A stretch of DNA of 27,273 bases from a virus (IMGVR_UViG_3300033233_000145:1-27273), one strand, 5' to 3'; shown: positions 1,040-22,980, counted from the stretch's first letter. The notes: generated from the sequence alone by a model not told the origin. Translations and numbers: made by a program.

Positions 1040-3282
1040 CAGAGGCGTCCGACCGGTGCGAACTCGTCACGGATGGCCTTGATGTCGCCCTTGTACGCGA
1101 CGATGATCCGCTGCTCGCGCTTGGGGAACTTGCGGACGTTGAGGGTCTTCTTCGCCTGGGCTAGCCGCGTGAACTCGGCCTCGAGGTAGACGATCTTGTT
1201 GTAGACGCTGAGGCCCTGTTCCTTGAGGAACACTTCCGTCTCGGCCTCGTGGCAGTGGTACGCGCCGTCCTTATCCCGGCTGTCGCCGGTCATCACCACG
1301 AAGAAGCGGTTATCGCCTAGGTGTTTGAGCGCGGTCGTGTAGCCCGCGAACAGCGTGTCGCGGAACTCGTCATAGGAGGGGAGCGCGTTGATCTCACCGG
1401 GGGGCGGCGAGCCATCGTAGTCCACATATCGCTCGACCCGGTAGTACGGCGGACAGGTGAACACGAGGTCCCATTCACCTTCCGGCTCGTAGGTCGCGCT
1501 ATCGGCCTGGACCCAGCGCACATCGGCGAACTCGCTGCAGAGCGCGTTGTTCGCGTCACACTGGTTCTGTCTGATCTCGCTCGCCTCGTACTGATACCCG
1601 CTGGCGCCGGCGACGAACCCGAACTGGACTCCACCCCCGAACGGGTTATAGACGCGGCGACCCTCACGCGGCGTGAAGAACCGCAGGATGACCTCGCACG
1701 CGACAGGATCGAGCACCGAGGCGTTGCCATTGTGCGACCGGCCGGTCACCACATTGGCGAACCCGGCCTCGCCCTGCCAGCATCCTTCCCGCGTGGCGAA
1801 GGACGGATTGGGGATTGCCTCCCTTTCCCCGGCCTCGGTGAGACGTTCGTTCCACTCTTTCTTGAGCCGCAGCCAGTCGCCCTTCGTGCTGTTCCAGACG
1901 TTCGTCATCGTGATGTGAGCGAGGGTCTTCAGCCGGTGGTACGCGGGGTCGCCTGCGAGCATGTAGTGGAAGCCGGACATCTGGAGGTAGGTCGAGAATC
2001 CGAGGCTCTCGAAGAGGGCAGGTGTCTCGAACTTGCTCTTGGGGTTCGTGGTCATGAGTGCGGGGAGGTTGTCGGTATTGCACTCGAGCACCTCTTCGGC
2101 CATCGCCCTGTAGAGCTCGGGCGAATACACGTCCGGTCGGATGACGGACTGCAGGAGGCAGAACTCTCCATCCTTCGCGTTGTTCTGGAAGGTGAAGAAC
2201 CCGGCGAACTCACCACCCATCAGCAGGATGATGGCCGAGTGAATCTGCATGTTCTTGCGCGCGGCCCGGTGCGCGATGCCGTCTTCGAGAGCGAGGGCCG
2301 CGACCTGCTCCTCGTAGCCCGACCCGATCACGCTTTCGACATAGCGAAACTCGATGCCCGCCTCGATCGGTAGTTCATCCCTGTGCTGCTCTTCCTCCGG
2401 TTCGAAGAGCATCATGCTCTGGGACATCCAGTCCTCCTTCGCTCGTCGGGTGTGCCATCCGTCGATCACCCCGCACTGGTCGGGGCAGGTGCTGCAGTGC
2501 CCTAGATAGACCTCGGGGTTGTGCAAGGAGACCAGCGTGCCCCCGCCGATGGAGTCGGGGCGGCGGGTCGCCTTGAGGTCCCCACTGAGAAGCCTTGGAT
2601 TGTCAGGACTCACCCGCAACGGGTTGTCGATGAGTGGTTCCAACGTGAGCAGGTAGTCCTGCCGCGCTGCGGCCTGTCGGCCCCATTCGGTATCCCCGTA
2701 GTCCGCCGTCACCACACGGTTGATACTGGTGATCCCCGCGTCACGGATGCGGTACATCTGCTCCACCCGGAACCGCATCTGGGCGTCGGTGTCGAACCCA
2801 CTGGTCGAGGTGTTCACAACCACGTCGAGGTCGAGCATCCGGCTGAGATGCTCGTCGGATAGGGGGAGCCAGTGCTTCGTGATAATCACGGCCGTCTTCT
2901 TGGCGGGCTGAAGCGCTCTGATCACATCCAGGGTATGCGGCCAGTCGTGACAGGGGTCACCCATTACCCCGATGCGATACCAACTCGCCGAGTGGTTGAG
3001 CAGTTGCCGGATAATCATGTCGCGGTGCTGGCGGGTGTCCGCGAAGTGACGGGATACGCTCGTACTGAAGTCGATGCCGTACCGAGTCGCGATGGTGTTC
3101 GCATAGCACTCGTCGTAACACCCCCGGCCGTTGTGGCCAGCGCGCATCCCCGCCGTGCAGCCCTTGACCGTATCGACATCCATGCAGCCCTTCAGGTTGA
3201 CGGACGCCGTGATGATGTCGTGATAGCCGCGCGGGACTCGCTCCACTACCCCTAGGTCGAGCTTCACCCGCACGGCGCTCAC
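1039..3282 (-). CDS. Three-domain fusion: radical-SAM-like, GNAT-like and CPPYY DNA methyltransferase
   Basis: The start chosen is GTG at 3282: it makes a GTGA overlap with the MazG-like gene and has GGAG five bases upstream. GTG 3297 is possible in frame. Length is 747 aa. Residues 1-290 carry Cys33, Cys42, Cys55, Cys59 (GRGCYDECYA) and a later CSTCPDQC (263-270). The GC...C..CYA pattern and the following VMGDP/TKHW segments recall the phage Gp37/Gp68 (DUF5131) radical-SAM-like family, although the spacing is not the canonical CxxxCxxC. Residues about 308-440 look like a GNAT acyltransferase fold ending FESLGF. Residues about 490-735 are a DNA amino-methyltransferase: YNPFGGGVQFG (545-555, SAM loop) and TCPPYY (609-614, catalytic), then a KGD tail typical of phage DNA modification methylases. 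Known: such methylases modify adenine-N6 or cytosine-N4. Inferred: the extra domains elaborate the added group. No partner nuclease is visible. Confidence 0.8.
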   Translation of the reverse strand: MSAVRVKLDLGVVERVPRGYHDIITASVNLKGCMDVDTVKGCTAGMRAGHNGRGCYDECYANTIATRYGIDFSTSVSRHFADTRQHRDMIIRQLLNHSASWYRIGVMGDPCHDWPHTLDVIRALQPAKKTAVIITKHWLPLSDEHLSRMLDLDVVVNTSTSGFDTDAQMRFRVEQMYRIRDAGITSINRVVTADYGDTEWGRQAAARQDYLLTLEPLIDNPLRVSPDNPRLLSGDLKATRRPDSIGGGTLVSLHNPEVYLGHCSTCPDQCGVIDGWHTRRAKEDWMSQSMMLFEPEEEQHRDELPIEAGIEFRYVESVIGSGYEEQVAALALEDGIAHRAARKNMQIHSAIILLMGGEFAGFFTFQNNAKDGEFCLLQSVIRPDVYSPELYRAMAEEVLECNTDNLPALMTTNPKSKFETPALFESLGFSTYLQMSGFHYMLAGDPAYHRLKTLAHITMTNVWNSTKGDWLRLKKEWNERLTEAGEREAIPNPSFATREGCWQGEAGFANVVTGRSHNGNASVLDPVACEVILRFFTPREGRRVYNPFGGGVQFGFVAGASGYQYEASEIRQNQCDANNALCSEFADVRWVQADSATYEPEGEWDLVFTCPPYYRVERYVDYDGSPPPGEINALPSYDEFRDTLFAGYTTALKHLGDNRFFVVMTGDSRDKDGAYHCHEAETEVFLKEQGLSVYNKIVYLEAEFTRLAQAKKTLNVRKFPKREQRIIVAYKGDIKAIRDEFAPVGRL

Positions 3283-3530
3283 ATCGACTCCAGCCACGCG
3301 ACTGCCACGGCGGCGATCTCGATCAGCTCGGCACGGATACCCGGTTCGTCGCCCTCAAGGACCGCGGAGGCGACCTCGCCGCATTCCTCCGTTAGTACGG
3401 CGACCTTGACGATGACCGGAACATCCGTCGAGGAGCAGTCTCCGTAGCCCCAGCCGTGATCGCGGGTCCACAGGAGCCCTTGTCGTACACGTTCGGCGTC
3501 GATGCGCTCGTAGATGTCGGCGCGCTTCAC
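3279..3530 (-). CDS. MazG-like nucleotide pyrophosphohydrolase
   Basis: This 83-aa all-helical protein reads IYERIDAERVRQGLLW near its N-terminus and TEECGEVASAVLEGD at about 47-61, followed by ELIEIAAVAVAWLESM. The EExxE...E(L)xx(A) pattern is the metal-binding arrangement of the MazG/all-alpha NTP pyrophosphatase family, which hydrolyses (d)NTPs to monophosphates. The length is usual for phage single-domain members. GTG at 3530 overlaps the preceding stop as GTGA, and its own stop overlaps the fusion gene start. The location next to a DNA-modification enzyme is compatible with nucleotide-pool housekeeping, but that link is inference. Confidence 0.8.
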   Translation of the reverse strand: MKRADIYERIDAERVRQGLLWTRDHGWGYGDCSSTDVPVIVKVAVLTEECGEVASAVLEGDEPGIRAELIEIAAVAVAWLESM

Positions 3531-3778
3531 GACTTCTCCCGCAGCAGCGCCGACCGGGCCATCTTGCGGAGCTCGTCGTCCTCTCGCATCAGCAGGCCGC
3601 CGCAGCGGTCCTTCCGCAGCCGCCAGATGTCGTCGGGGTCATCCGCGGCCATCTCGACGCAGGAGGCTTGGAAGTCCCGCACGCCGGCGCGTAGCGTCTG
3701 CTCGCGGAGCCTTGCCAGACGCGAGGCCGCGCACAAGATGGCGTCGTCCACCCGCGCGTTGAAGTCGAGGTCAACCAC
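3527..3778 (-). CDS. Hypothetical helical protein
   Basis: This 83-aa protein is unrecognised. It starts with GTG at 3778, preceded by GGAGG at six-base spacing, and overlaps the stop of the winged-helix gene by 8 nt, the only non-4-nt overlap of that size in this operon. It is rich in Arg, Asp and Ala, predicted helical, with a short Cys-containing segment (FQASCVEMAADDPDDIWR) and a second Cys (KDRCGGLL). No membrane segment or known motif was seen. Its place between the replication-type gene and the MazG-like gene suggests a nucleic-acid metabolism accessory, but nothing in the sequence shows it. Confidence 0.65.
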   Translation of the reverse strand: MVDLDFNARVDDAILCAASRLARLREQTLRAGVRDFQASCVEMAADDPDDIWRLRKDRCGGLLMREDDELRKMARSALLREKS

Positions 3779-4457
3779 GGCGGGCCTCCTCGATCTCCAT
3801 CTCGGCGATCAGCGGGTCGTAGGGGCGCGGCGGATCGGGTCGACCGCCATGGCCGTTGGAGCGTTCCGCCGGGTAAGGCTCATCGAGCCATCCCTCCGCA
3901 CGGAGCCACGATGCCGGGTACGGGATGTGCTGCTTGTCGGGCAGGTGCGGATCGCTAGCTAGGCGCCGCGCGGACTCCATCAGCGTTGCGTGGTCGGTCT
4001 TCCGCAGCGCCTCGCGGTACGCCTTGAGCGCATCGGCCCGTTTCATGTGTCTCGGGTAGGCGGCGTACCACTCGGCGAAGCCAAGGGTGTTAGTACCCAC
4101 AGAGGATGAAGCTGTAGAACCAGTGCTAGGAGCAAGTTCCTTAAGTTCGGGTGACATCTGCGGTCCGTGGATGTCACCGTGCCAAAGTGGCATGGTCTCG
4201 TTGGGGAGGACCCGGTAGAGGTTCGTGCCGTGCGGTCCGGCCTTGAACGCGATCAGCAACTCGCCCTGCAGGCGCGCCTGCTCGATCGCCCGGAAGACCG
4301 TCCGCGAGCTCACGTTCGCCTCTTTGGCGATCCGGTCGATGGAGGGGAACGCGCCCCGTTCCTCGGTCTCGTGGTTGGCGATGACTAGGAGCACCATGCG
4401 AGACGCGCCGCCGAGCTTTGAGTGCTCAAGCACACGGGTCATGGCCTGAACGCTCAC
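3771..4457 (-). CDS. Winged-helix replication-initiation-type protein
   Basis: This 228-aa protein has an N-terminal winged helix-turn-helix (about residues 18-65): LLVIANHETEERGAFPSIDR, IAKEANVSSRTVFRAIEQAR, a typical HTH_36-like arrangement. A Ser/Thr-rich linker (about 108-125) leads to a C-terminal module, FAEWYAAYPRHMKRADALKA and IPYPASWLRAEGWLDEP, which is common at the C-terminus of phage replication proteins (protein O or DnaD-like primosome loaders). The likely role is binding the phage origin and recruiting the host helicase. GTG at 4457 forms GTGA with the preceding stop; an in-frame ATG lies 15 bases further in. No helicase, primase or polymerase gene is in the window, so those would be outside it or supplied by the host. 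Confidence 0.7.
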   Translation of the reverse strand: MSVQAMTRVLEHSKLGGASRMVLLVIANHETEERGAFPSIDRIAKEANVSSRTVFRAIEQARLQGELLIAFKAGPHGTNLYRVLPNETMPLWHGDIHGPQMSPELKELAPSTGSTASSSVGTNTLGFAEWYAAYPRHMKRADALKAYREALRKTDHATLMESARRLASDPHLPDKQHIPYPASWLRAEGWLDEPYPAERSNGHGGRPDPPRPYDPLIAEMEIEEARRG

Positions 4458-5881: not shown

Positions 5882-6171
5882 GCGGTCACCTCCGAGCAGA
5901 CCGGACATGCCGACGCGGGCTCTGTCCCGTGTTTGCAGGTGTCGGGGTCGATGTGGTGTCGGGGGTCGATGTAGCGCGCGGTGAGTTCTTCGCGTTCGCG
6001 GTCCTGATCGACGATGGATTGTGAACGCGGGGGGCGGCGCCAGACGGGGCAAGAGGGTTCGTGCCAGCGACGGCCTAGCTTGGCGCTATAGGTTGCGCCG
6101 CAGATGCCGCAGGGTTCGCGGATGAGACGGGCATACGCGGCGTCGGCCTCGCGGTCGAAGGCAGACTTCAC
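5878..6171 (-). CDS. Cys/His-rich small protein (two putative zinc sites)
   Basis: This 97-aa protein has CGICGATYS (21-29) with WHEPSCPVW (36-44), a plausible CxxC/HxxxC zinc ribbon, and at the C-terminus CKHGTEPASACPVC, a second putative site. The middle is charged and helical (DQDREREELTARYIDPRHH). GTG at 6171 overlaps the HNH gene stop as GTGA. Small zinc-ribbon proteins are common in phage early regions; no specific activity can be assigned. Metal binding is inferred from spacing only. Confidence 0.65.
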   Translation of the reverse strand: MKSAFDREADAAYARLIREPCGICGATYSAKLGRRWHEPSCPVWRRPPRSQSIVDQDREREELTARYIDPRHHIDPDTCKHGTEPASACPVCSEVTA

Positions 6172-6626
6172 GCCTGCTCCGCTTCACGAGCGCGCCAATA
6201 TGCCGCCGACGCCTGGGCTCGGGCGCATTGACGGCACTTCCGCCGCGGCTTGCGATGGGGCCCGTAGCGAGCGATGCGAAGGTTGTCCCCCGACAAGGGG
6301 TGACCATGCACGCAGTGGGTCTTGCGAGCATTGAGCGCCGCCGGTGCGATGGGGCTTCGCATCAGGTTCTCTCGCGGCGTCACCGGTTCAAGATGGTCCG
6401 GGTTCACGCAGTGCCTTACACGGCAGAGGTGGTCGAGTTGAAGAGTTTCAGGAATGGGTCCGACTAGGACCGAATACACGAGTCGGTGGACTAGAACGTA
6501 GCGCTTGTTGATGCTTGACCCGGCATAGCCTTTGGATCCGATCCAGCCAGTCCAAAGCCAGCACCCCGCCGCATCCGGTGCGATCTTCGATGCAACATGA
6601 GTAGGAAGTGTCGAGACGCTCTTCAC
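6168..6626 (-). CDS. HNH endonuclease (homing-type)
   Basis: This 152-aa protein reads GCWLWTGWIGSKGYA (21-35), VHRLVYSVLVGPIPE (46-60), LQLDHLCRVRHCVNPDHLEP (62-81) and PRENLMR, then CVHGHPLSGDN (105-115) and a CRQC pair (131-134). The H-N-H core with a structural Cys/His site matches the HNH_3-type free-standing nucleases frequent in phages and often annotated as homing endonucleases. The GTG start at 6626 overlaps the upstream stop as GTGA. No intron or intein flanks it, so it is free-standing; it could move with this locus or nick DNA in some phage process. The family call is firm; the biological role is open. Confidence 0.9.
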   Translation of the reverse strand: MKSVSTLPTHVASKIAPDAAGCWLWTGWIGSKGYAGSSINKRYVLVHRLVYSVLVGPIPETLQLDHLCRVRHCVNPDHLEPVTPRENLMRSPIAPAALNARKTHCVHGHPLSGDNLRIARYGPHRKPRRKCRQCARAQASAAYWRAREAEQA

Positions 6627-11036: not shown

Positions 11037-12470
11037 TTACCCCACCCGGTCCGCGATAATCTGCAGGGTCAGGTCTTCCGGGGGGGTCGAGCCGAGCGAG
11101 ACGACCTTGACCTTGAAGTGGTCCCCTCGCTCAACGGCGCGGTTATGGATCAGCTTCGTGGACCCGTCATCGTCCCCTGCCGGCAGCGAGAGCATGTCCC
11201 CCGTGTCGTCCTCGAACACGGAGGCGTAAGCCCCCCCGACCGGACGCACCTGGAGGTCGATGATGGCTGCTCCGCCGGTCCCTGCGGTATCGGCTGCCCC
11301 GGTGTAACGCCGGATGATGTAGTCGTCATCGAAGCGGTTCGGGGGTTTATAGGTCCCCACGACGAGCGGCCCGGGGACGTTGAACGTGATGACACGACGG
11401 ATCATCTTCGGCAGACGACCGTCCGGGTCGGCGTCGGGGTCCGAGTTCCCCCCCAGCGTGGCCGGGATGAACGCCGAACGATCCCGGTCATCGTCCACGT
11501 TCAGCACGCGGGCAAAGAACTTCTGATCCTCGTCGATATCCGACGCATCGACGTGGAAGCGGACCTGTGTCTTCTTCAGATGCCGCTTCCAGTGATACAG
11601 GTCGCGCATGAAGTACCCGGACCCATCAGCGGTGAGGTTGACCGCCGAGCCCCCGGAGGTCAGAGACACCTTAAAGTCGTTGGTCGCCGAGCTCACGACG
11701 TAGTAACGCCGACCGACCTTCAGACCCGCAGGGAGAGATGCCCCCCGGACCATGACGATATCCCCGTTGGCTAGCCCGTGAGAGGTTGCGGAGAGCTTGT
11801 CGTCGGACTCTTCCCCGGTGAACGCTACCCAGGTTGGGAAGGTGTAGGGCTCGGTCCCCAGGAACAGTTGCGCTACGGCGTGGTCCACGTCGTCGTGGAA
11901 TATCTCGCCTTCATCGTCGTCGTCGGTGTCGTCTACCTCCTCGTCCCAGTTGACGAAGATGCCGTGGGGACGCCGATGGATCGACACGTTGGACGGCGCC
12001 GGGGGGCCTTGGGACAGGGTATCGGTGAAGTAGTCGGACCATTCGGCCTTGCAGTTGACCCCGATCGCCCGCACCCGGTAGCGGTAAGCGAGCCGCGCCC
12101 GGATACCCTTGATGATCTTCTGCACCTTGTCGTTGTCGTCGTCATCATCCTTGGCCGGGACCTGGATGCGGTCGAGCAGGAACCAGTCGACCTCGTTCGC
12201 GCTGTATTCGACCTCGACGGCGTAGGTGCGGACGATGAGCGGGAAGCCGTCGGCGTCGAAGCGGACCTCGGGCCAGCGGATGCGCCAGCGCCAGCGGTTG
12301 TGCCGTCCCTTTCCGGGGCGTTTGAAGAACTCCCCGAACAGGTCCCCGGAGTCGATCTGCGCCGGCCGGTGTGGGCAGGGGTTCTTCCGGTGGCGGTTGG
12401 CGCGCTTGCCGTGACCCCCGGCCTTGCGTGCGAGCTCGGCGGTGTCCCCCCGGGGATACTTGGGCTTCAC
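11037..12470 (-). CDS. Minor tail protein with fibronectin type III-like domains
   Basis: This 477-aa protein starts with GTG at 12470, which makes GTGA with the preceding stop; the frame is open further upstream but that part is a shadow. After a very basic N-terminus (GGHGKRANRHRKNPCPHRP) there is a first FnIII-like domain (about 68-150, ending YRYRVRAIGVNCKAEWSDYF), with an Asp run (109-112), and a second one from PPAPSNVSIHRRPHGIFVNW (156-175). The second is interrupted by an Asp-rich stretch (178-186) and a small beta domain (about 225-286) before resuming at TQVRFHV. The C-terminus (about 380-477) looks like a beta-sandwich found in siphophage tip proteins. It is likely part of the tail tip or central fibre. 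Confidence 0.7.
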   Translation of the reverse strand: MKPKYPRGDTAELARKAGGHGKRANRHRKNPCPHRPAQIDSGDLFGEFFKRPGKGRHNRWRWRIRWPEVRFDADGFPLIVRTYAVEVEYSANEVDWFLLDRIQVPAKDDDDDNDKVQKIIKGIRARLAYRYRVRAIGVNCKAEWSDYFTDTLSQGPPAPSNVSIHRRPHGIFVNWDEEVDDTDDDDEGEIFHDDVDHAVAQLFLGTEPYTFPTWVAFTGEESDDKLSATSHGLANGDIVMVRGASLPAGLKVGRRYYVVSSATNDFKVSLTSGGSAVNLTADGSGYFMRDLYHWKRHLKKTQVRFHVDASDIDEDQKFFARVLNVDDDRDRSAFIPATLGGNSDPDADPDGRLPKMIRRVITFNVPGPLVVGTYKPPNRFDDDYIIRRYTGAADTAGTGGAAIIDLQVRPVGGAYASVFEDDTGDMLSLPAGDDDGSTKLIHNRAVERGDHFKVKVVSLGSTPPEDLTLQIIADRVG

Positions 12471-13552
12471 GAGCCCACGTCCCCCACCATCGCCCAGTTG
12501 ACGCGGACGAACACGTTGTCCGGCATCTGCACGGAGACCTCGATCTCCTGCACCCGCACGGGGATGTCGAGCTCCCACCCCGGACGGGAGGACTGAAGGG
12601 TGATGATGTCCCCCACGTCGAACGTGCCGAGGGCGGGGCCGCTTGAGAGTTCGTACCAGACATCCGAACCCACGACCGGCGTGTCGGAGATGAGCGCCTG
12701 CGCCCGCTCGTCCGCGTCGTCCTGGTCGTCCGAGTCGACGCTGTCGAAGTCCTCAAGCAGTCCGTACGTGGCCAGCGCCGAGGCATCCGGCCAGTCCCCC
12801 ACCGGGGGATCGCAGTCCCCCGAGCCGACCGCGTGACCCCGGGACACGATCTGGCCGGCGTCGATCTCGTAGCTGAGCGTGTCCAGGTACTGCGTCCCGT
12901 CCAGCGTCACCGAGCCCGACAGGTCACTCCCGCGAGATGGGTTGAAGGTCACGAACGCCCGGGAGGATGCATCGGTGAGCGTCGGCGTGATGGCCCAGTC
13001 GATCCCGTCGGACAGTGCCGCGTACTCATCCAGCACGTCGGAGATGAACAGGCCGTCCTCGACGCAGTACCAGGCGCGGCGTAGGTGAGAGCCTCCGGTG
13101 TGCGTCCCCTGCGTGAGTCCCAGGTCCCCCCCGGTCTCGGCTTGCGAGCGGTCGATCAGGTCCCAGACGACCTCCTCTTGAGACAACCCATAGGACGTAT
13201 TCAGGTTCGTGGGGGTCTCGGTAACCTTCTCGTAGCGGACCTCCCAGTCGATGCCGCGGCGCCGCAGGATGCCCCCGAGCCCTTCGCCGATGAGCTTGCC
13301 GCTTAGGCGGTTCGCGTTCGTATCCACCCGTGCGATCCAGATACGGCCCTCGGCGCGGAGCGTGGCTCCGTCGAACACCTTGTAGTCGCGCTGTCCCGGC
13401 TCGATGTCGTCCCGGGCGATGTTGTGCATCGAGAACGCGGCCTCGAAGGAGCCTGGACCGTCGAGCGAGTGCGTGAACGAGAAGTCACCTATGGGCAGGT
13501 CGGCGGATACCGGCGTCCCGTCCAGCTCGAACGTCGCGACGGTCCACGTCAT
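12467..13552 (-). CDS. Tail hub-like minor tail protein
   Basis: This 361-aa protein has the N-terminus WTVATFELDGTPVSADLPIG and GPGSFEAAFSMHNIARDDIE, followed by GRIWIARVDTNANRLSGKLIGEG. This is the usual start of siphophage hub or tail-associated proteins related to Gp37-like/gp27-like families, where beta domains form the ring closing the tail tube. The ATG overlaps the tape measure stop as ATGA and its stop overlaps the next gene as GTGA. It occupies the place normally taken by distal-tail and hub genes; no separate distal tail protein gene is seen. The family assignment is moderate. Confidence 0.65.
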   Translation of the reverse strand: MTWTVATFELDGTPVSADLPIGDFSFTHSLDGPGSFEAAFSMHNIARDDIEPGQRDYKVFDGATLRAEGRIWIARVDTNANRLSGKLIGEGLGGILRRRGIDWEVRYEKVTETPTNLNTSYGLSQEEVVWDLIDRSQAETGGDLGLTQGTHTGGSHLRRAWYCVEDGLFISDVLDEYAALSDGIDWAITPTLTDASSRAFVTFNPSRGSDLSGSVTLDGTQYLDTLSYEIDAGQIVSRGHAVGSGDCDPPVGDWPDASALATYGLLEDFDSVDSDDQDDADERAQALISDTPVVGSDVWYELSSGPALGTFDVGDIITLQSSRPGWELDIPVRVQEIEVSVQMPDNVFVRVNWAMVGDVGS

Positions 13553-16876: not shown

Positions 16877-17269
16877 CTAGGAAGCGCTTACCATGACTCC
16901 GGTAGTCGTGAACTCCAGGTCCACGGTCTCCTCTTCGCCCGTCGCCGGAGCGTGGACGGTGAACCCGCTCACGTAGGCGTCGACCGTGTAGTCGAAGCCC
17001 CCGGGGCTCGTCATCACGAGCGATGCGGGTGAGGAACTGTCGCCCACCACGGCCTCGAACGCGGCGTGGGAGGTGACGTGGTTGCAGGAGAACGTGATCT
17101 GTGAGGGGTCCTTCAGCCCGGCGATGTACTCGCGGGTGCCCGACTCCGAGTCGTGGTTCGTGACCTCCACCCTGGCGCTGGTCACGCCGAGGTCGAAGGT
17201 CTTGATCTCGTCGATGGAGTCGCCACCGAACGTGACGGTCCAACCCTGAGCGAGGAATGCATCGGTCAT
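16877..17269 (-). CDS. Major tail tube protein
   Basis: This 130-aa protein has the compact beta-rich make-up of siphophage tail tube subunits: GWTVTFGGDSIDEIKTFDLG, DSESGTREYIAGLKDPSQIT and FDYTVDAYVSGFTVHAPATG, ending DLEFTTTGVMVSAS. The ExxDLxxS/TxxR...EYIAGLKD pattern is common in lambda gpV/TP901-like tail tube families. ATG at 17269 has AAGGACA upstream. Its position between the tail terminator and the chaperone genes is the conserved place. It would polymerise into the tail tube around the tape measure protein. Confidence 0.85.
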   Translation of the reverse strand: MTDAFLAQGWTVTFGGDSIDEIKTFDLGVTSARVEVTNHDSESGTREYIAGLKDPSQITFSCNHVTSHAAFEAVVGDSSSPASLVMTSPGGFDYTVDAYVSGFTVHAPATGEEETVDLEFTTTGVMVSAS

Positions 17270-17904: not shown

Positions 17905-18141
17905 ATGGAACCGAACCGACTCGAGTTGATGGACGAGTGGGAAGGATGGCAGCGCGTCGTGGAGGCCCTCAAAACCTGCGCCTGCGCCATCGACATCAAC
18001 GAGGAAGACCGACTCGCCGCTGCGATCACGATGTGGGGCGAGCTGCTAGTCGCGCTCCGCATGACGCAGACGGCAGAGGTACGAGCGGACGCGCTGGAGG
18101 CGAGGATCACGAAGTTCAACCGCGTTCTTGCGCGGCGGTAA
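17905..18141 (+). CDS. Moron-like small helical protein, only plus-strand gene
   Basis: This 78-aa protein starts at ATG 17905, preceded by GGAGGAGG with a six-base spacer (TGAGAC), and ends with TAA at 18141. It starts MEPNRLELMDEWEGWQRVVE and is predicted mostly helical, with one CAC pair (TCACAID) and AITMWGELLVALRMTQTAEV. I recognise no family. It sits against the direction of all other genes, between head-completion and tail-terminator genes, and has its own strong terminator. This gene-plus-terminator unit is the hallmark of a moron, usually expressed independently of the late genes, for example in lysogens. The convergent minus-strand frame is a shadow. Confidence 0.75.
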   Translation: MEPNRLELMDEWEGWQRVVEALKTCACAIDINEEDRLAAAITMWGELLVALRMTQTAEVRADALEARITKFNRVLARR

Positions 18142-18210: not shown

Positions 18211-18558
18211 CTAGCGGAACAAGCGAGCGAGCAGCACCGAGGCAGCGCGGGCGAACCCGGGGGCGGCCTGGTCGGCGGCGGGGCGAAGGAACGGCTGGGC
18301 GGGGGTATCGCTGGTGCCGAACTCGACTGGAGCGGCGTAGGGGATGCTGGTGCCCACCCGCGCGCCCTCGGAGTCGGTCTCGGTATGGATCGAGTCCCGC
18401 AGCGCGCCCGTGAGCACCGGGGCGCGGGCCTTCGCGGCCTGCTCGACCTCCGCCGCTCCGCTGGCGACGATCCCGGCTCCCGCGGCCTTGGACGCGACGC
18501 CGAGCGCGGCGAACTTGGCCACGGCCTGGGGGACGCCGAACACCTGGATGCGGATCAA
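18211..18558 (-). CDS. HK97 gp10-like head-tail/tail completion protein
   Basis: This 115-aa protein starts IRIQVFGVPQAVAKFAALGV and has the family hallmark AKARAPVLTGALRDSI, then VGTSIPYAAPVEFGTSDTPA and QPFLRPAADQA. AP.xTGxLRxSI...YAxxVEFGT...PFLRPA is the classic pattern of HK97-gp10-like proteins, which complete the neck or tail end. The start is TTG at 18558, overlapping the preceding TGA as TTGA, with GGAG upstream. It lies between the stopper and (beyond the plus-strand gene) the tail terminator, in the usual order. Confidence 0.88.
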   Translation of the reverse strand: MIRIQVFGVPQAVAKFAALGVASKAAGAGIVASGAAEVEQAAKARAPVLTGALRDSIHTETDSEGARVGTSIPYAAPVEFGTSDTPAQPFLRPAADQAAPGFARAASVLLARLFR

Positions 18559-18920
18559 GGCTCACGCTCCACGATGCGTAGCGGCGTCAGGATGGCCCAG
18601 GAGTCCCGCTCTACCCCGGTGATGTCGTAGGTGATCCCGGCTACCAGGGCGCGGTGGGCCTCGGTGATGTCGGGGAAGTCCCCGAGCAGGATGAGCCGCT
18701 GCTCCCGGGCCTGCGTGATCGCCCCCGGGGCGACCAGCTCGGACTCAGGGCCGGACCCGGGGAAGAACGCCGAGCGCTGCGCCGGGATACCGGTGTAGAC
18801 CGAGGACCAGGACTCGGCCTCGCCGCCTTCCTCGTCGCGGCTGACCGAGCGGGCCTGGATCGTGGCGGCGTCGGGGAAACCTCGGGCTACGGTGGTCGCG
18901 CTCGGCGTGGGGAACGGCAA
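18555..18920 (-). CDS. Head closure (stopper-like) protein
   Basis: This 121-aa protein starts with TTG at 18920, with a strong AAAGGAGGT six bases upstream. Sequence includes VSRDEEGGEAESWSSVYTGI, IPAQRSAFFPGSG and the closing ITYDITGVERDSWAILTPLR, with a beta-rich layout (DEEGG... IPAR... Y.I.GVE......) typical of SPP1 gp16/HK97 gp7-like stopper proteins that plug the connector after DNA packaging. It precedes the gp10-like gene. The family match is by pattern and position. Confidence 0.7.
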   Translation of the reverse strand: MPFPTPSATTVARGFPDAATIQARSVSRDEEGGEAESWSSVYTGIPAQRSAFFPGSGPESELVAPGAITQAREQRLILLGDFPDITEAHRALVAGITYDITGVERDSWAILTPLRIVEREP

Positions 18921-19019
18921 CTAGGGACCTCCTTTGGAGATTGACCGCGCCGTCGCCGGTTGACGCCTTGCGGCCCCGGACGCCCGCGCCTCACCTTCAT
19001 GCCGACGACGCTCGGTCAC
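18921..19019 (-). CDS. Possible 32-aa basic protein
   Basis: GTG at 19019 overlaps the stop of the glycosyltransferase gene as GTGA and the frame ends TAG immediately before the TTG start of the stopper gene. It would encode an Arg/Ala-rich peptide starting VTERRRHEGEARASGAARRQ. A competing frame from ATG 19000 (MKVRRGRPGPQGVNRRRRGQ, 37 codons, ending inside the stopper gene) is also basic and resembles small basic proteins seen after capsid genes in some phages. At most one is likely real; neither has clear homology. Confidence 0.3.
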   Translation of the reverse strand: MTERRRHEGEARASGAARRQPATARSISKGGP

Positions 19020-19711
19020 CTGCTCGCGATCAGCTCGCGCATCTGCTCCGGCCTTCGTGCTCTCAGGTACGCCGCGGCGATAGCTCGGTTCTCCGCGTCG
19101 CTCGTCTGTCCGTCCCACAGGTCCCGCCCGCTGCGGCCGATGCGGGGGTGCCACAGGTGGATGCAGGTGCCGCGCATCATCACCGGAGCCCCGTAGAGCA
19201 CCCGGAGCGCCCGGGCGAAGGTGACGTCGTCCTGCCCCCAGCCGGCGATGCGCTCGTCCATCCCCCCGACGCCGTCGAATGCTTCGCGGGTAACGAGCAG
19301 CGGCGGGGCAGCGACGAACGTGTTCAGGTTCTCCAAGCCCTTGCGCTGGCGGGGTGTCAGCGTCCCGTCCCAGGCTGGGCCTTGCGCCAGGATATCCCGA
19401 GTCGTCTGTTCGTCGAGCTTCAGTTTCAGGTTCCACGGCTTAGACCACGCGGCTCCGACGGTGATGGCGTCCAGAGCCTTGCCGACCAGCTCGGGGGACA
19501 CCCAGGTATCGGCGTCGGTGATGAGATACACGCCGCCGGACGCTCGGGACGCGGCGGCGTTCACGGCCTTTCCCTTGTTGAACGGCAACCCGTCGTCTGT
19601 TCCGACGAGCACCTCAGCGAAGCTCTTGTGCAGGCTGGCGGCGATCAGGTCCCAGAGTTTCGTGCGATGCCCGTCCCCCGGTTCGCGGAACGGGACCAGT
19701 ACGGAGATCAC
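19016..19711 (-). CDS. GT-A fold glycosyltransferase (GT2/GT27-like)
   Basis: This 231-aa protein starts with GTG at 19711 (GTGA overlap) reading VISVLVPFREPGDGHRTKLW. It has the nucleotide-binding start, NKGKAVNAAASRASGG, a DxD metal site in LITDADTW (DAD at 66-68) and GGMDERIAGWGQDDVTFARA (149-168), which matches the GWGxED-type acceptor segment of galactosyl/N-acetylgalactosaminyl transferases. HLWHPR near the C-terminus is also usual. There is no membrane segment. It is coupled to the GT32-like gene and probably acts on virion proteins or another phage-specific acceptor; the sugar and acceptor cannot be read from sequence. Confidence 0.85.
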   Translation of the reverse strand: MISVLVPFREPGDGHRTKLWDLIAASLHKSFAEVLVGTDDGLPFNKGKAVNAAASRASGGVYLITDADTWVSPELVGKALDAITVGAAWSKPWNLKLKLDEQTTRDILAQGPAWDGTLTPRQRKGLENLNTFVAAPPLLVTREAFDGVGGMDERIAGWGQDDVTFARALRVLYGAPVMMRGTCIHLWHPRIGRSGRDLWDGQTSDAENRAIAAAYLRARRPEQMRELIASR

Positions 19712-20331
19712 CAGGGCACCCCCGTCTGCGCTTTCCAGCCTGCGACCCAATGGTGTACACAGTAGGACTCCGGGGGATACGGCCCTCCGAGCCGCTCCCG
19801 CTCCCACCACAGCACCGGGTAGAACGTCTCGCGGGGAAGCCGCCGGACGTCGCGGCGTCGGCGCCACACGCGGGTGAACGGCACCGGCCCCGTCTGGTAG
19901 TTGGGCTTGGTTCCCGGCTGGTGATCGAACCAGCCCGGTAGGTAGTCCAACACGGCCGCGAACGCCGGATGTCCCGGGGGCGAACCGAGCACCGTGGGGC
20001 AGAGCAGGACCCGGTCCTTCTCCCACGCCGCGAACGGCCGGTCATCGTCTAGGAGCGGGTCGAACGGTCGCAGCGGTTCCACGTCCGTGTCGACGTAGAC
20101 GCCGCCGTGGGCCAGCATGATCTCGTACCGGAGCAGGTCCGCCTTGCCCGCCCACGTCTGGCACCTGTCGAACAACGCCTTGGTCCGCATCCACCCGAGC
20201 TGTGACGAGTCGTCCCAGGTCACGAACTCCCACGATGGATGCAGCGCCTTGAACCTGTCCCAGTAGTCCTCGAAGCGTCGCGGGACCTGCTCGTCGAGCC
20301 ATATCCTGTGATACACGCGAGGGATGATCAC
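19708..20331 (-). CDS. OCH1/GT32-like glycosyltransferase
   Basis: This 207-aa protein starts with GTG at 20331 and reads VIIPRVYHRIWLDEQVPRRF, then HPSWEFVTWDD and GKADLLRYEIMLAHGGVYVD with DTD at 81-83. IPRxxHxIW, P.WE..xWDD, and AxxxDxxRYxxLxxxGGxYxDxD are the diagnostic blocks of the Gly_transf_sug (DXD) family, which includes OCH1-type mannosyltransferases and bacterial GT32 enzymes. The C-terminal HHWVAGWK supplies the usual late His/Trp. It overlaps both neighbours by four bases in the same cassette. The donor sugar is unknown. Confidence 0.9.
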   Translation of the reverse strand: MIIPRVYHRIWLDEQVPRRFEDYWDRFKALHPSWEFVTWDDSSQLGWMRTKALFDRCQTWAGKADLLRYEIMLAHGGVYVDTDVEPLRPFDPLLDDDRPFAAWEKDRVLLCPTVLGSPPGHPAFAAVLDYLPGWFDHQPGTKPNYQTGPVPFTRVWRRRRDVRRLPRETFYPVLWWERERLGGPYPPESYCVHHWVAGWKAQTGVPW

Positions 20332-20813
20332 GCGAGCTGCTCCACGAGTTCGGCATCGCTCAGGTACTTCGCGTTGCCGTCCAGCCACCCGTACCCCACT
20401 GCCGCCTCGTGGTCCGAGGAGTCCCAGGCCCAGTCGGCGACCCAGCAGCGGTATCCGGGGTCTGCGAACGCTTCGTAGGACGTGAGCAGGAACGGCAGCA
20501 TGAGTTGCGCGCAGTTGGTGATCGCCCATGCATAGGCTCGCTGCGCCATCACGAGCCCTTCCTGCCACGTCGCCGCGTGCCCGTTGCTTACCTGCGACAG
20601 ACCGAGGCAGTCGGCGCGGCGGCTCGTCAGGATCACGCGGGTATCGTTGCGGTCCAGCTCGGCCATGATCGCCGGCAACCGAGGATAGCCTTTCGCGTAG
20701 GGAAGCGACCGGCGTACCAGTCGGTTCGACTCGTCCCAGTTCGCAGCCTCAAGCAGCGCCGCGGTGTAGCGGGTTCCCGACGCCTCCGGCCCAAGGACGA
20801 TGACCCCGATCAC
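20328..20813 (-). CDS. Sulfotransferase-like P-loop protein
   Basis: This 161-aa protein starts VIGVIVLGPEASGTRYTAAL: a strand then a loop (8-15) resembling the phosphosulfate-binding loop of sulfotransferases rather than a Walker A with GK. RVILTSRRADCLGLS has an Arg and a Ser eight residues apart (R65, S73), like the 3'-phosphate-binding motif of PAPS-dependent enzymes, and LLTSYEAFADPGYR recalls their YExLxxDP block. It is shorter than most family members (about 250 aa or more). GTG at 20813 overlaps the upstream stop as GTGA. Among glycosyltransferases it might sulfate a glycan; a nucleotide kinase is the alternative. Confidence 0.55.
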   Translation of the reverse strand: MIGVIVLGPEASGTRYTAALLEAANWDESNRLVRRSLPYAKGYPRLPAIMAELDRNDTRVILTSRRADCLGLSQVSNGHAATWQEGLVMAQRAYAWAITNCAQLMLPFLLTSYEAFADPGYRCWVADWAWDSSDHEAAVGYGWLDGNAKYLSDAELVEQLA

Positions 20814-21460
20814 AGCACCGTGTTGAGGTCGAAGCCCGCGCGGCGTGAGGCCCGCTCGATAGCGTCCCGATGCGCCTCCCGGTGCGCCTCCATCAGCCCT
20901 CGGTTGGCTCGAGCCGTCGGGGTCCGCATGTTGGGCGGCGGGTGGAACAGGTGGTAGGAGTTGCCGGGGATCATGGTCCAGCGATCCACGAGCGAGATGT
21001 TCATGGCCGTGTCCTCATGCCCCCACTCGACGTAATGCGTGTCGTAGCCGCCGACCTTGTCCCAGGCCGTCCGGGAGATCACGAGCGCTCCGCCTCCGGG
21101 AACGGTCCAGCGCAGGAACCGCGCAGGCATGTCCTCCAGTCCGTGGGTAAGCAACCGCTTGGTCGCAACGGGACCGAGCATGTAGCGGTGGTCGTGCGGA
21201 CGTACCGCGCCACCACGACGCACCATATGGACGGCCCTTGCGACCGCATCGGGCTCAAGCAGCGTGTCGGCGTCCGTGATGAGCGCCACGTCCCAGGCCC
21301 CGGCCTGCTCGGCCGCTGAGTTGCACGCCGCGGCTCGAGCCCACGGCCCGACAGAGTCCCCGGTGAACAGGTCGTAGCCGAGCGATTCCAGGTGCGGGCG
21401 GACGAAAGCCCAGTGCCGCTCGCGTAACGGGTCTCCCGGCCTCCAAGGGACCAAGCTCAC
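20810..21460 (-). CDS. GT-A fold glycosyltransferase (family 2-like)
   Basis: This 216-aa protein starts with GTG at 21460 (GTGA overlap with the methyltransferase stop; another GTG lies three bases upstream). It starts VSLVPWRPGDPLRERHWAFV and contains ARAAACNSAAEQAGAWDVAL, ITDADTLLEPDA (DAD at 63-65, the metal/nucleotide-sugar site), VPGGGALVISRTAWDKVGGY and YVEWGHEDTAMNIS (144-157, acceptor side). The layout is close to the other GT-A protein of the cassette, suggesting common ancestry, although the two sequences differ widely. No membrane segments are present. The substrate is unknown. Confidence 0.85.
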   Translation of the reverse strand: MSLVPWRPGDPLRERHWAFVRPHLESLGYDLFTGDSVGPWARAAACNSAAEQAGAWDVALITDADTLLEPDAVARAVHMVRRGGAVRPHDHRYMLGPVATKRLLTHGLEDMPARFLRWTVPGGGALVISRTAWDKVGGYDTHYVEWGHEDTAMNISLVDRWTMIPGNSYHLFHPPPNMRTPTARANRGLMEAHREAHRDAIERASRRAGFDLNTVL

Positions 21461-22047
21461 CACGCGCACGCCCAGACCCCCAGGTATTTCGTCGGATAGA
21501 TCAGCTCGTCCTCCCAGTAGCCGTCCTCGATCACGAGCCACGGCCGACCGAGTGCGAACGGCGGGGCTTCCAGGTCGTACTCGTGGTAGCCCCCGGCCCG
21601 GGTGTCCCGGGTGTTGTCCGAGCCCTCGAACGTCGTGGCGCACAGCCATATGGGGCCGCTGCGCCGGAAGTTGCCGAGCGCCTTGAGAACCTCGGCGTTG
21701 GACAGGTGCGCCAGGACATCGCGCGCCACGATCACGTCGCACCGAGGAAGTTCCGCGGTGCAGATATCCCCGACGTGGTAAGTCCGTCCGGGGAACCGCT
21801 CGGCCGCGGCCTGAACGGCCTCGGGAACGATGTCGATGCCTATGTAGCCGGGCAGGTCCGGCATCCACCAGGACGCGCCACAAGCGGCATCAAGGACCGA
21901 TGTTGCCCCGATGCCGGCGATGAGCTCGGGCAGGACCCGACGCAGCCTCGATGTAGAGGCATACGTCGAGCCCGGCCCTGAGCGCGTCTCCGTGCCGTGC
22001 CAGCGGTTCGACCTGTAGATAGCGCCGAACACGCTCTCACGGCCCAC
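21457..22047 (-). CDS. Class I SAM-dependent methyltransferase (small)
   Basis: This 196-aa protein has FGAIYRSNRWHGTETRSGPG, then the SAM-binding motif TSVLDAACGASWW (49-61), the acidic end of strand 2 in YIGIDIVPEAV (68-78), and CDVIVARDVLAHLSNAEVLK (103-122), a standard Rossmann methyltransferase layout. Phage and bacterial relatives of this kind occur in glycan loci, where they may O-methylate sugars. The GTG at 22047 lies six bases after the capsid gene stop but has a poor ribosome binding site; an in-frame GTG five codons on is an alternative. No DPPY-type motif is present, so DNA is an unlikely substrate. Confidence 0.8.
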   Translation of the reverse strand: MGRESVFGAIYRSNRWHGTETRSGPGSTYASTSRLRRVLPELIAGIGATSVLDAACGASWWMPDLPGYIGIDIVPEAVQAAAERFPGRTYHVGDICTAELPRCDVIVARDVLAHLSNAEVLKALGNFRRSGPIWLCATTFEGSDNTRDTRAGGYHEYDLEAPPFALGRPWLVIEDGYWEDELIYPTKYLGVWACAW

Positions 22048-22053
22048 CGGGGT

Positions 22054-22980
22054 CTAGGACGCCGGCGCCAGCGCCGCGAACGGGTACTCCTGGCCCCCGG
22101 TCTCCGAACGCACCGTGTCCGCCACCACGAAGCCGAGACGGAACTTGGCACGCAGCGCGATCATGTCCTGCTCGGCGAGCGAGAACGTGATGTTGCCCGA
22201 GCCGTCGGTGAGCGTGGCCTCCGTCAGGATCTTGTAGGTCACGTCCTGACGGATGCCGATGATGGCCGCGGAACGGTCGCCCACGATCATCGTGGCCGAG
22301 TCGGAGTCCCACGCGCCGTTGGTGACGAAGGTGATGTCCTCACCCATGAGCGAGCGGTCCGCCCGGTCTCCCCGCAGGGACTCCAGGTAGATCGGCACGC
22401 CGTTGTCGTCACGCAGGCCGCGCAGCCGCATCCGGATCGCCCGCGATGCGTACTGCGTGTTCACGTCGGCACCTACGGCCTCGACCATCCCCCATGTCTG
22501 GTTGATGTCCTCTGCCAGGTCCACCCCGGAGCCTCCCTCGAAGTAGACCTGTCCCGCTGACGTCGCTCCCTCGAACAGGGAGTCATCGAACCCCGAGGGT
22601 GCGCTGGTCCCAAAGAACACCGCGGCGTCGACGATCTTGCCGAGCGCCTCGGCGATCCGCGGACGGACCTCCTCCCAGACACCGAACTCGGTGTCATCGA
22701 AGACGGCCTCGGGGATGGGCACGATCACCGCGGCCTCTTCGGCCGTGATGGTCTTCTTGTCCCACTGCGACTCGGCCGTGGGCTTGTTATCCGTGTCGCC
22801 CGAGAGCCAACCAGCCTGCGGGAGCACCGTCAGGATCGGGTACTTCGCGACCTTGGTCGAGAGCCGAACCGTCCGGAACGTCCGCAGCGCCGCGGAGAAC
22901 TCCACCGCGTTCTGCAAGATGTCCTGGATGTTCTGATCGGCCAACAGACCTGCCGCGTCATTGCGGTCGATGTCCGCCAT
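22054..22980 (-). CDS. Major capsid protein (HK97 fold)
   Basis: This 308-aa protein has ADQNIQDILQNAVEFSAALR, TKVAKYPILTVLPQAGWLSG, EEAAVIVPIPEAVFDDTEFG and the C-terminal GIRQDVTYKILTEATL with AEQDMIALRAKFRLGFVVAD, a typical HK97-fold capsid order (N-arm, E-loop, P-domain, A-domain). ATG at 22980 has GAGGAGGTATCCGC upstream. A separate scaffold gene precedes it, and no protease gene is seen, so assembly is probably by scaffold without a protease-linked delta domain, or with a protease elsewhere. Confidence 0.92.
   Translation of the reverse strand: MADIDRNDAAGLLADQNIQDILQNAVEFSAALRTFRTVRLSTKVAKYPILTVLPQAGWLSGDTDNKPTAESQWDKKTITAEEAAVIVPIPEAVFDDTEFGVWEEVRPRIAEALGKIVDAAVFFGTSAPSGFDDSLFEGATSAGQVYFEGGSGVDLAEDINQTWGMVEAVGADVNTQYASRAIRMRLRGLRDDNGVPIYLESLRGDRADRSLMGEDITFVTNGAWDSDSATMIVGDRSAAIIGIRQDVTYKILTEATLTDGSGNITFSLAEQDMIALRAKFRLGFVVADTVRSETGGQEYPFAALAPAS

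What the first reader, a model, noticed from the sequence alone, without database searches (positions are those of the whole stretch)
19016..22047. Virion-decoration cassette inserted in the head gene cluster
Five coupled genes (methyltransferase, GT2-like, sulfotransferase-like, GT32-like, GT2/27-like) lie between capsid and stopper genes. Each junction inside the block is a GTGA overlap, indicating one unit. Known: some actinophages glycosylate capsid and tail proteins. Inference: this block builds a methylated, possibly sulfated glycan on the capsid or tail, hiding it from antibodies or host factors. A link to the hypermodified base is a less likely alternative because the genes are in the late block.
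Basis: partly seen in the sequence, partly recalled or inferred. Interest (0 to 1): 0.6.

Follow-up and report, generated by a model that had tools for sequence, protein, structure and literature searches.

The report
Phage virion sugar-coating gene cassette
This phage fragment carries a five-gene block between its capsid and neck genes that very probably attaches a methylated sugar chain to the last amino acid (a serine) of its capsid and tail-tube proteins, a kind of virus decoration already known from related phages, here with a new enzyme mix and a sequence signature that helps predict it.

Summary
Window 19016-22047 (minus strand) encodes five genes (methyltransferase, GT7C/GT2-type GT, small P-loop protein, GT32, GT2) joined by four GTGA overlaps, between the major capsid protein (MCP) and an Hc1-like stopper. 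Microbacterium phages with the same MCP type lack it. Other relatives (L002, L030) have different or reshuffled GT/methyltransferase blocks at that slot, and published cluster J mycobacteriophages have the same arrangement. The window's GT7C enzyme is a homolog of a cluster O GT; cluster O GTs are reported to modify capsid and tail tube.

New evidence for the target: reported glycans sit at the C-termini of capsid and tail-tube subunits, and here MCP (...APAS) and major tail protein (MTP, ...VSAS) both end in serine. In two MCP families, GT-bearing phages show this double C-terminal serine far more often than GT-free ones (10/13 vs 3/31 lineages, p = 2.5e-5); one apparent exception proved to carry a distant GT.

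So this is a virion O-glycosylation cassette, a new member of a known kind. Sulfation is not established: the P-loop protein has only two detected relatives and no confident fold. The shared C-terminal serine is the most useful result, because it makes virion glycosylation predictable.

The parts
22054..22980 (-). Major capsid protein; ends ...LAPAS; C-terminal Ser is the proposed glycan acceptor
   Evidence: Phage_capsid 2e-29, PHROG 10 4e-41; C-terminus read
21457..22047 (-). Class I SAM-dependent methyltransferase (start GTG 22047 or 22032)
   Evidence: Methyltransf_25 6e-7, PHROG 3382 6e-33; 44% identical to the L030 and 35% to the Ariel methyltransferase, both in GT blocks
20810..21460 (-). 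GT7C/GT2-type glycosyltransferase (DAD and WGHED motifs)
   Evidence: Glyco_transf_7C 5e-7, PHROG 1721 2e-18; homolog of Catdawg gp35, 28%, 4e-11
20328..20813 (-). 161-aa P-loop protein (GPEASGTR), function unknown, possibly a sulfo- or phosphotransferase
   Evidence: No family hit; relatives L003 7965-8435 and L011 2489-3058, both beside GT genes
19708..20331 (-). GT32-type glycosyltransferase (DTD motif)
   Evidence: Gly_transf_sug 6e-12; weak match to the yeast Och1-type mannosyltransferase 9n3s, 5e-4; homologs in Phrappuccino, prophiGD91-2, L030, L028
19016..19711 (-). GT2-type glycosyltransferase (DAD and WGQDD motifs)
   Evidence: PHROG 1721 1e-19, Glycos_transf_2 2e-4
18921..19019 (-). 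32-aa Arg-rich ORF coupled by GTGA to the end of the cassette; may not be a gene
   Evidence: sequence
18555..18920 (-). Hc1-like head-closure (stopper) protein
   Evidence: Phage_HCP 1e-3, PHROG 25 3e-3: weak
16877..17269 (-). Major tail protein; ends ...MVSAS; C-terminal Ser is the proposed glycan acceptor
   Evidence: PHROG 158 3e-7; C-terminus read

Best explanation
A virion O-glycosylation cassette. Made late, together with the structural proteins, the three glycosyltransferases build a short glycan on the C-terminal serine of the major capsid protein and the major tail protein, and the methyltransferase modifies it. The P-loop protein adds or prepares one further group. Shown here: the genes, their coupling, the homologies, the recurrent slot, the shared C-terminal serine and its statistical link with GTs. 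Inferred: that these serines are the acceptors, the order of the enzymes, the sugars, and the role of the P-loop protein.
For: Gene content and coupling. Same slot filled by other GT/methyltransferase sets in L002 and L030, and in cluster J; absent from Microbacterium phages with the same MCP type. GT7C homologous to a cluster O GT; cluster O GTs are said to modify capsid and tail tube, and glycans are said to sit at the C-termini of these proteins (papers citing Freeman et al. 2023). MCP and MTP both end in Ser; double C-terminal Ser in 10/13 GT-bearing vs 3/31 GT-free lineages of two MCP families, p = 2.5e-5; L117, which had the signature but no GT nearby, carries a distant GT, and 15 controls of at least 30 kb without the signature have no hit to three GT families. 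Background of Ser-ending genes in GT-free loci is 13%.
Against: No biochemical data. The signature was noticed after the fact and the lineages are not fully independent. Exceptions: L067, L109 (MTP ends in Thr), L069 (GT doubtful), Ariel (MCP ends in Ala), Kudefre, and Myrna's annotated capsid protein. In the window other late proteins also end in Ser (tail terminator, chaperone, one minor tail protein). The window MCP and MTP have no Ser/Thr-rich tail.
Confidence: 0.75

Rival explanations
1. The cassette glycosylates a different virion protein only (minor tail or receptor-binding protein), or internal sites of MCP/MTP; the shared C-terminal serine is incidental.
For: A minor tail protein (12467-13552) also ends in GS. 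GT-bearing Ariel and Kudefre lack the signature on MCP.
Against: The association of double C-terminal serine with GTs in two MCP families; reported glycans are on capsid and tail-tube C-termini.
Confidence: 0.12
2. The enzymes modify the host cell surface late in infection or in lysogens, blocking superinfection or re-adsorption of progeny to debris.
For: Phage GTs are known to alter host serotype during lysogeny (review cited in PMC12619734). Phrappuccino and prophiGD91-2 carry the same enzyme set outside the head genes.
Against: Position and coupling inside the head operon; no membrane anchor, flippase or polyprenyl-phosphate GT was recognised in the block; the C-terminal signature on virion proteins.
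Confidence: 0.08
3. The enzymes glycosylate hypermodified bases in phage DNA.
For: Phage GTs can glycosylate modified DNA bases (Pyle et al. 2024, cited in PMC12619734).
Against: The GT types here are those of the head-operon blocks of clusters J and O and their relatives; the genes sit in the late block; no base-synthesis gene was recognised among ten ORFs from 1-9 kb, though the record is partial.
Confidence: 0.03

Closest known systems
Cluster J mycobacteriophages (Omega, Thibault, Ariel): 8-10 gene insertion between capsid and head-tail connector genes (PMC3706429)
   Same: Same slot; several GTs plus methyltransferase; homologous methyltransferase (Ariel gp17, 35%)
   Different: Ariel has a kinase-like gene and a zinc-protease gene in the block and no P-loop relative; its MCP does not end in Ser
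Cluster O mycobacteriophages (Corndog, Catdawg): O-methyltransferase plus three GTs (PMC4351075)
   Same: Late head-gene block of methyltransferase and GTs; Catdawg gp35 is homologous to the window GT7C; MCP and MTP both end in Ser
   Different: Block lies between portal and protease; no P-loop gene recognised
Phrappuccino genes 142-145 and prophiGD91-2 genes 73-76
   Same: Closest match in enzyme set: GT32, GT2, GT2, methyltransferase
   Different: Located away from the head genes; no P-loop gene recognised
Uncultured relatives L002/L020, L028, L030 (same MCP family)
   Same: GT/methyltransferase blocks in the head operon; MCP and MTP both end in Gly/Ala-Ser
   Different: Different or fused enzymes (GT1 pair; GT7C-GT32 fusion; FkbM methyltransferase; Polysacc_synt_2); the L028 block lies upstream of the scaffold

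Membership tests
Actinophage virion-glycosylation cassettes (Freeman et al. 2023 type) | Phage-encoded GTs homologous to those reported to modify virions | tested here: met
   Window GT7C vs Catdawg gp35 4e-11; cluster O GTs reported to modify capsid and tail tube
Actinophage virion-glycosylation cassettes (Freeman et al. 2023 type) | Glycan on C-termini of capsid and tail-tube subunits | not testable with these tools
   Needs mass spectrometry; indirect: both proteins end in Ser and this tracks GT content
Head-operon GT/methyltransferase insertion (cluster J type) | Block between MCP and head-tail connector genes, absent from relatives | tested here: met
PAPS-dependent sulfotransferase (P-loop protein) | Significant similarity or fold match to sulfotransferases | tested here: inconclusive
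   No family hit for the window protein; L003 relative Sulfotransfer_3 E 0.016 below cut-off; profile vs olefin-synthase sulfotransferase-type chain 4gox E 0.41 (identity of that domain from memory); models pLDDT 48-51
DNA hypermodification system | Base-modifying enzymes together with DNA-acting GTs | tested here: inconclusive
   None recognised among ten ORFs from 1-9 kb; the rest of the genome is missing
Host serotype-conversion (gtr-like) module | Flippase and polyprenyl-phosphate GT genes beside the serotype GT | tested here: not met
   None of the five genes is of these types

The most novel reading that the evidence does not exclude
The P-loop protein founds a new family of very small phage sulfotransferases (or phosphotransferases) that put a charged group on a virion glycan, so that some tailed phages wear an anionic, methylated glycan on the C-terminal serine of their capsid and tail-tube subunits.
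Probability: 0.2. Interest if true: 0.7.

Novelty: new member of a known kind. Interest (0 to 1): 0.48.

Why it matters
Virion glycosylation of tailed phages is a recent discovery, known mainly from mycobacteriophages. The comparison shows GT/methyltransferase blocks recurring in the head operon with non-homologous enzymes. It also shows a simple signature, serine as the last residue of both capsid and tail-tube protein, that goes with such enzymes in two capsid families. If confirmed, virion glycosylation and its acceptor residue could be predicted from sequence for uncultured phages, and the acceptor specificity of these GTs becomes directly testable.

Tried and rejected
Ariel 'Ser/Thr kinase' gp16 as a relative of the P-loop protein: no similarity. 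tblastn of the P-loop protein and its L003/L011 relatives in 50,697 phage records: none; scans of viral and genome contigs gave only L003 and L011. Two structure predictions from three-sequence alignments: mean pLDDT 48 and 51, Foldseek matches not significant, not used. Solved-structure searches gave nothing usable for the P-loop protein or GT7C. Adaptor (Ad1) search in the window: none found, inconclusive because adaptors diverge fast; the Hc1 queries missed the window's own Hc1-like gene too. Codon composition as a sign of recent transfer: none. Freeman et al. 2023 is not held, so its content is cited through other papers. L060: MCP ends in Ser but MTP does not, and its insert includes a GH16-type protein, not a recognised GT. 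Myrna: C-termini not interpretable, since its capsid and tube genes are not securely assigned.

Full report
The window is a 27,273-base uncultivated virus record. On the minus strand the order is TerL, portal, scaffold, major capsid protein (MCP), the five-gene block, an Hc1-like stopper, neck, tail terminator, major tail protein (MTP), tail assembly chaperone and tape measure.

The block is methyltransferase 22047-21457, GT7C/GT2-type GT 21460-20810, a 161-aa P-loop protein 20813-20328, GT32 20331-19708 and GT2 19711-19016. All four internal junctions are GTGA overlaps, and the block starts 6 bp after the MCP stop. DxD-type and WGxED-type motifs can be read in the GTs. GC3 is in the range of neighbouring genes. 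Two other junctions in the operon also overlap by 4 bp, so the overlaps are consistent with one unit but not special.

Synteny in relatives. Microbacterium phages with the same MCP type (MonChoix, WestPM, Morrigan) run straight from MCP to small connector genes. L002, whose MCP is 61% identical, has GT1, methyltransferase and GT1 before its stopper gene. L030 has a GT7C-GT32 fusion right after MCP and, further on in the same block, a methyltransferase 44% identical to the window's. L028 has an FkbM methyltransferase, a Polysacc_synt_2 protein and a GT32-GT7C-GT2 fusion between portal and scaffold. L003, found through the P-loop protein, has two epimerases, a GT2 and the P-loop relative in one block. 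Cluster J phages are described as carrying 8-10 genes with GTs and methyltransferases between capsid and connector genes (PMC3706429; Ariel). Cluster O has an O-methyltransferase and three GTs between portal and protease (PMC4351075). Phrappuccino and prophiGD91-2 carry the GT32-GT2-GT2-methyltransferase set away from the head genes. So the enzymes are shuffled as modules, and the late head operon is a recurrent site.

What the block acts on. Papers citing Freeman et al. 2023 say that glycans sit on the C-termini of capsid and tail-tube subunits and that cluster O GTs modify these proteins. I could not read that paper itself, so I cannot say whether it describes a sequence motif. The window GT7C enzyme is a homolog of Catdawg gp35 (28%, 4e-11). 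I then compared C-termini. The window MCP ends APAS and MTP VSAS; L002 VGS and LGS; Che8 TGS and DGS; Catdawg VGS and GDS; prophiGD91-2 SGS and EAS; GMA2 TGS and TGS. MonChoix, WestPM, Morrigan, TM4, Giles and Bxb1 end in other residues. Absence of GTs from TM4, Giles and Bxb1 was not checked genome-wide here.

This pattern was noticed after the fact, so it was tested on two sets of 80 loci. In the window's MCP family, dereplicated at 80% MCP identity, 5 of 7 GT-bearing and 2 of 15 GT-free lineages have serine at the end of both proteins. In the Catdawg-type MCP family the numbers are 5 of 6 and 1 of 16. Combined: 10 of 13 against 3 of 31, Fisher p = 2.5e-5. About 13% of genes in GT-free loci end in serine, so both by chance would be near 2%. 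GT status was then checked over whole records with three Pfam GT models: L117, which had the signature but no GT nearby, has a Glyco_transf_7C match at 52.6 kb of its 55 kb genome, while 15 signature-free controls of at least 30 kb have none. These three models miss some GTs that protein queries found (L023, L116), so absence is not proof. With L117 moved and the doubtful L069 dropped, 11 of 13 against 2 of 30, p = 9e-7; those moves came after the first test, so the first p-value is the safer one, and neither corrects for shared ancestry. Exceptions: L067, L109 (MTP ends in Thr), Ariel, Kudefre; L024 and L071 have the signature without a GT but are fragments of 6 and 8.5 kb.

Best explanation. 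The cassette O-glycosylates the C-terminal serine of MCP and MTP and methylates the glycan. In phage Douge, Ig-like domains at the C-terminal ends of capsid and tail-tube proteins protrude outward (PMC13033339), so such ends can be accessible. The acceptor, the sugars and the enzyme order are inferred, not shown.

The P-loop protein. It has GPEASGTR near its N-terminus and WLDGNAKYL near its C-terminus. Only two relatives were found, L003 and L011, and both stand beside GT genes. Sulfotransferase evidence is weak: one sub-threshold Pfam match in L003 (E 0.016) and one non-significant profile match (E 0.41). Structure models were too poor to use. 'Possibly sulfated' remains an open guess.

Benefit. 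Weaker antibody responses are reported for glycosylated mycobacteriophages. For a phage of unknown environmental host, protease protection, adsorption effects or particle stability are equally open.

Verdict. A real virion-decoration cassette, a new member of a known kind, in a phage lineage where I found no description of it, with a rare extra enzyme. The shared C-terminal serine is the part most worth following up.

Noticed in passing
window 17905-18141 (+): A 78-aa ORF on the opposite strand inside the late operon (between neck and tail terminator), with a strong ribosome-binding site and a hairpin plus T-run after it; no PHROG hit.
   Followed up: partly
window 18920-22054: No recognisable Ad1 adaptor between MCP and Hc1, where relatives (L023, L028, L030, Che8) have one; the cassette stands in its usual place (inconclusive).
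   Followed up: partly
window 12467-13552 (-): A minor tail protein also ends in ...GDVGS, so it could be a further acceptor.
   Followed up: no
L060 7726-8676: A GH16-family protein (6e-20) and a 475-aa protein without family hit inserted between MCP and adaptor in a phage of the same MCP family.
   Followed up: no
L028 17270-18658: A second GT2-type protein (462 aa) in the tail-gene region, far from the main GT block.
   Followed up: no
L028 3456-4355 and L030 8159-9460: A shared 300-aa protein with no Pfam hit recurs in two virion GT blocks; perhaps an unrecognised GT.
   Followed up: no
window 6168-6626 (-), 3771-4457 (-), 3279-3530 (-): HNH_3 endonuclease, HTH_36 protein and weak MazG match in the left part of the record.
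   Followed up: no
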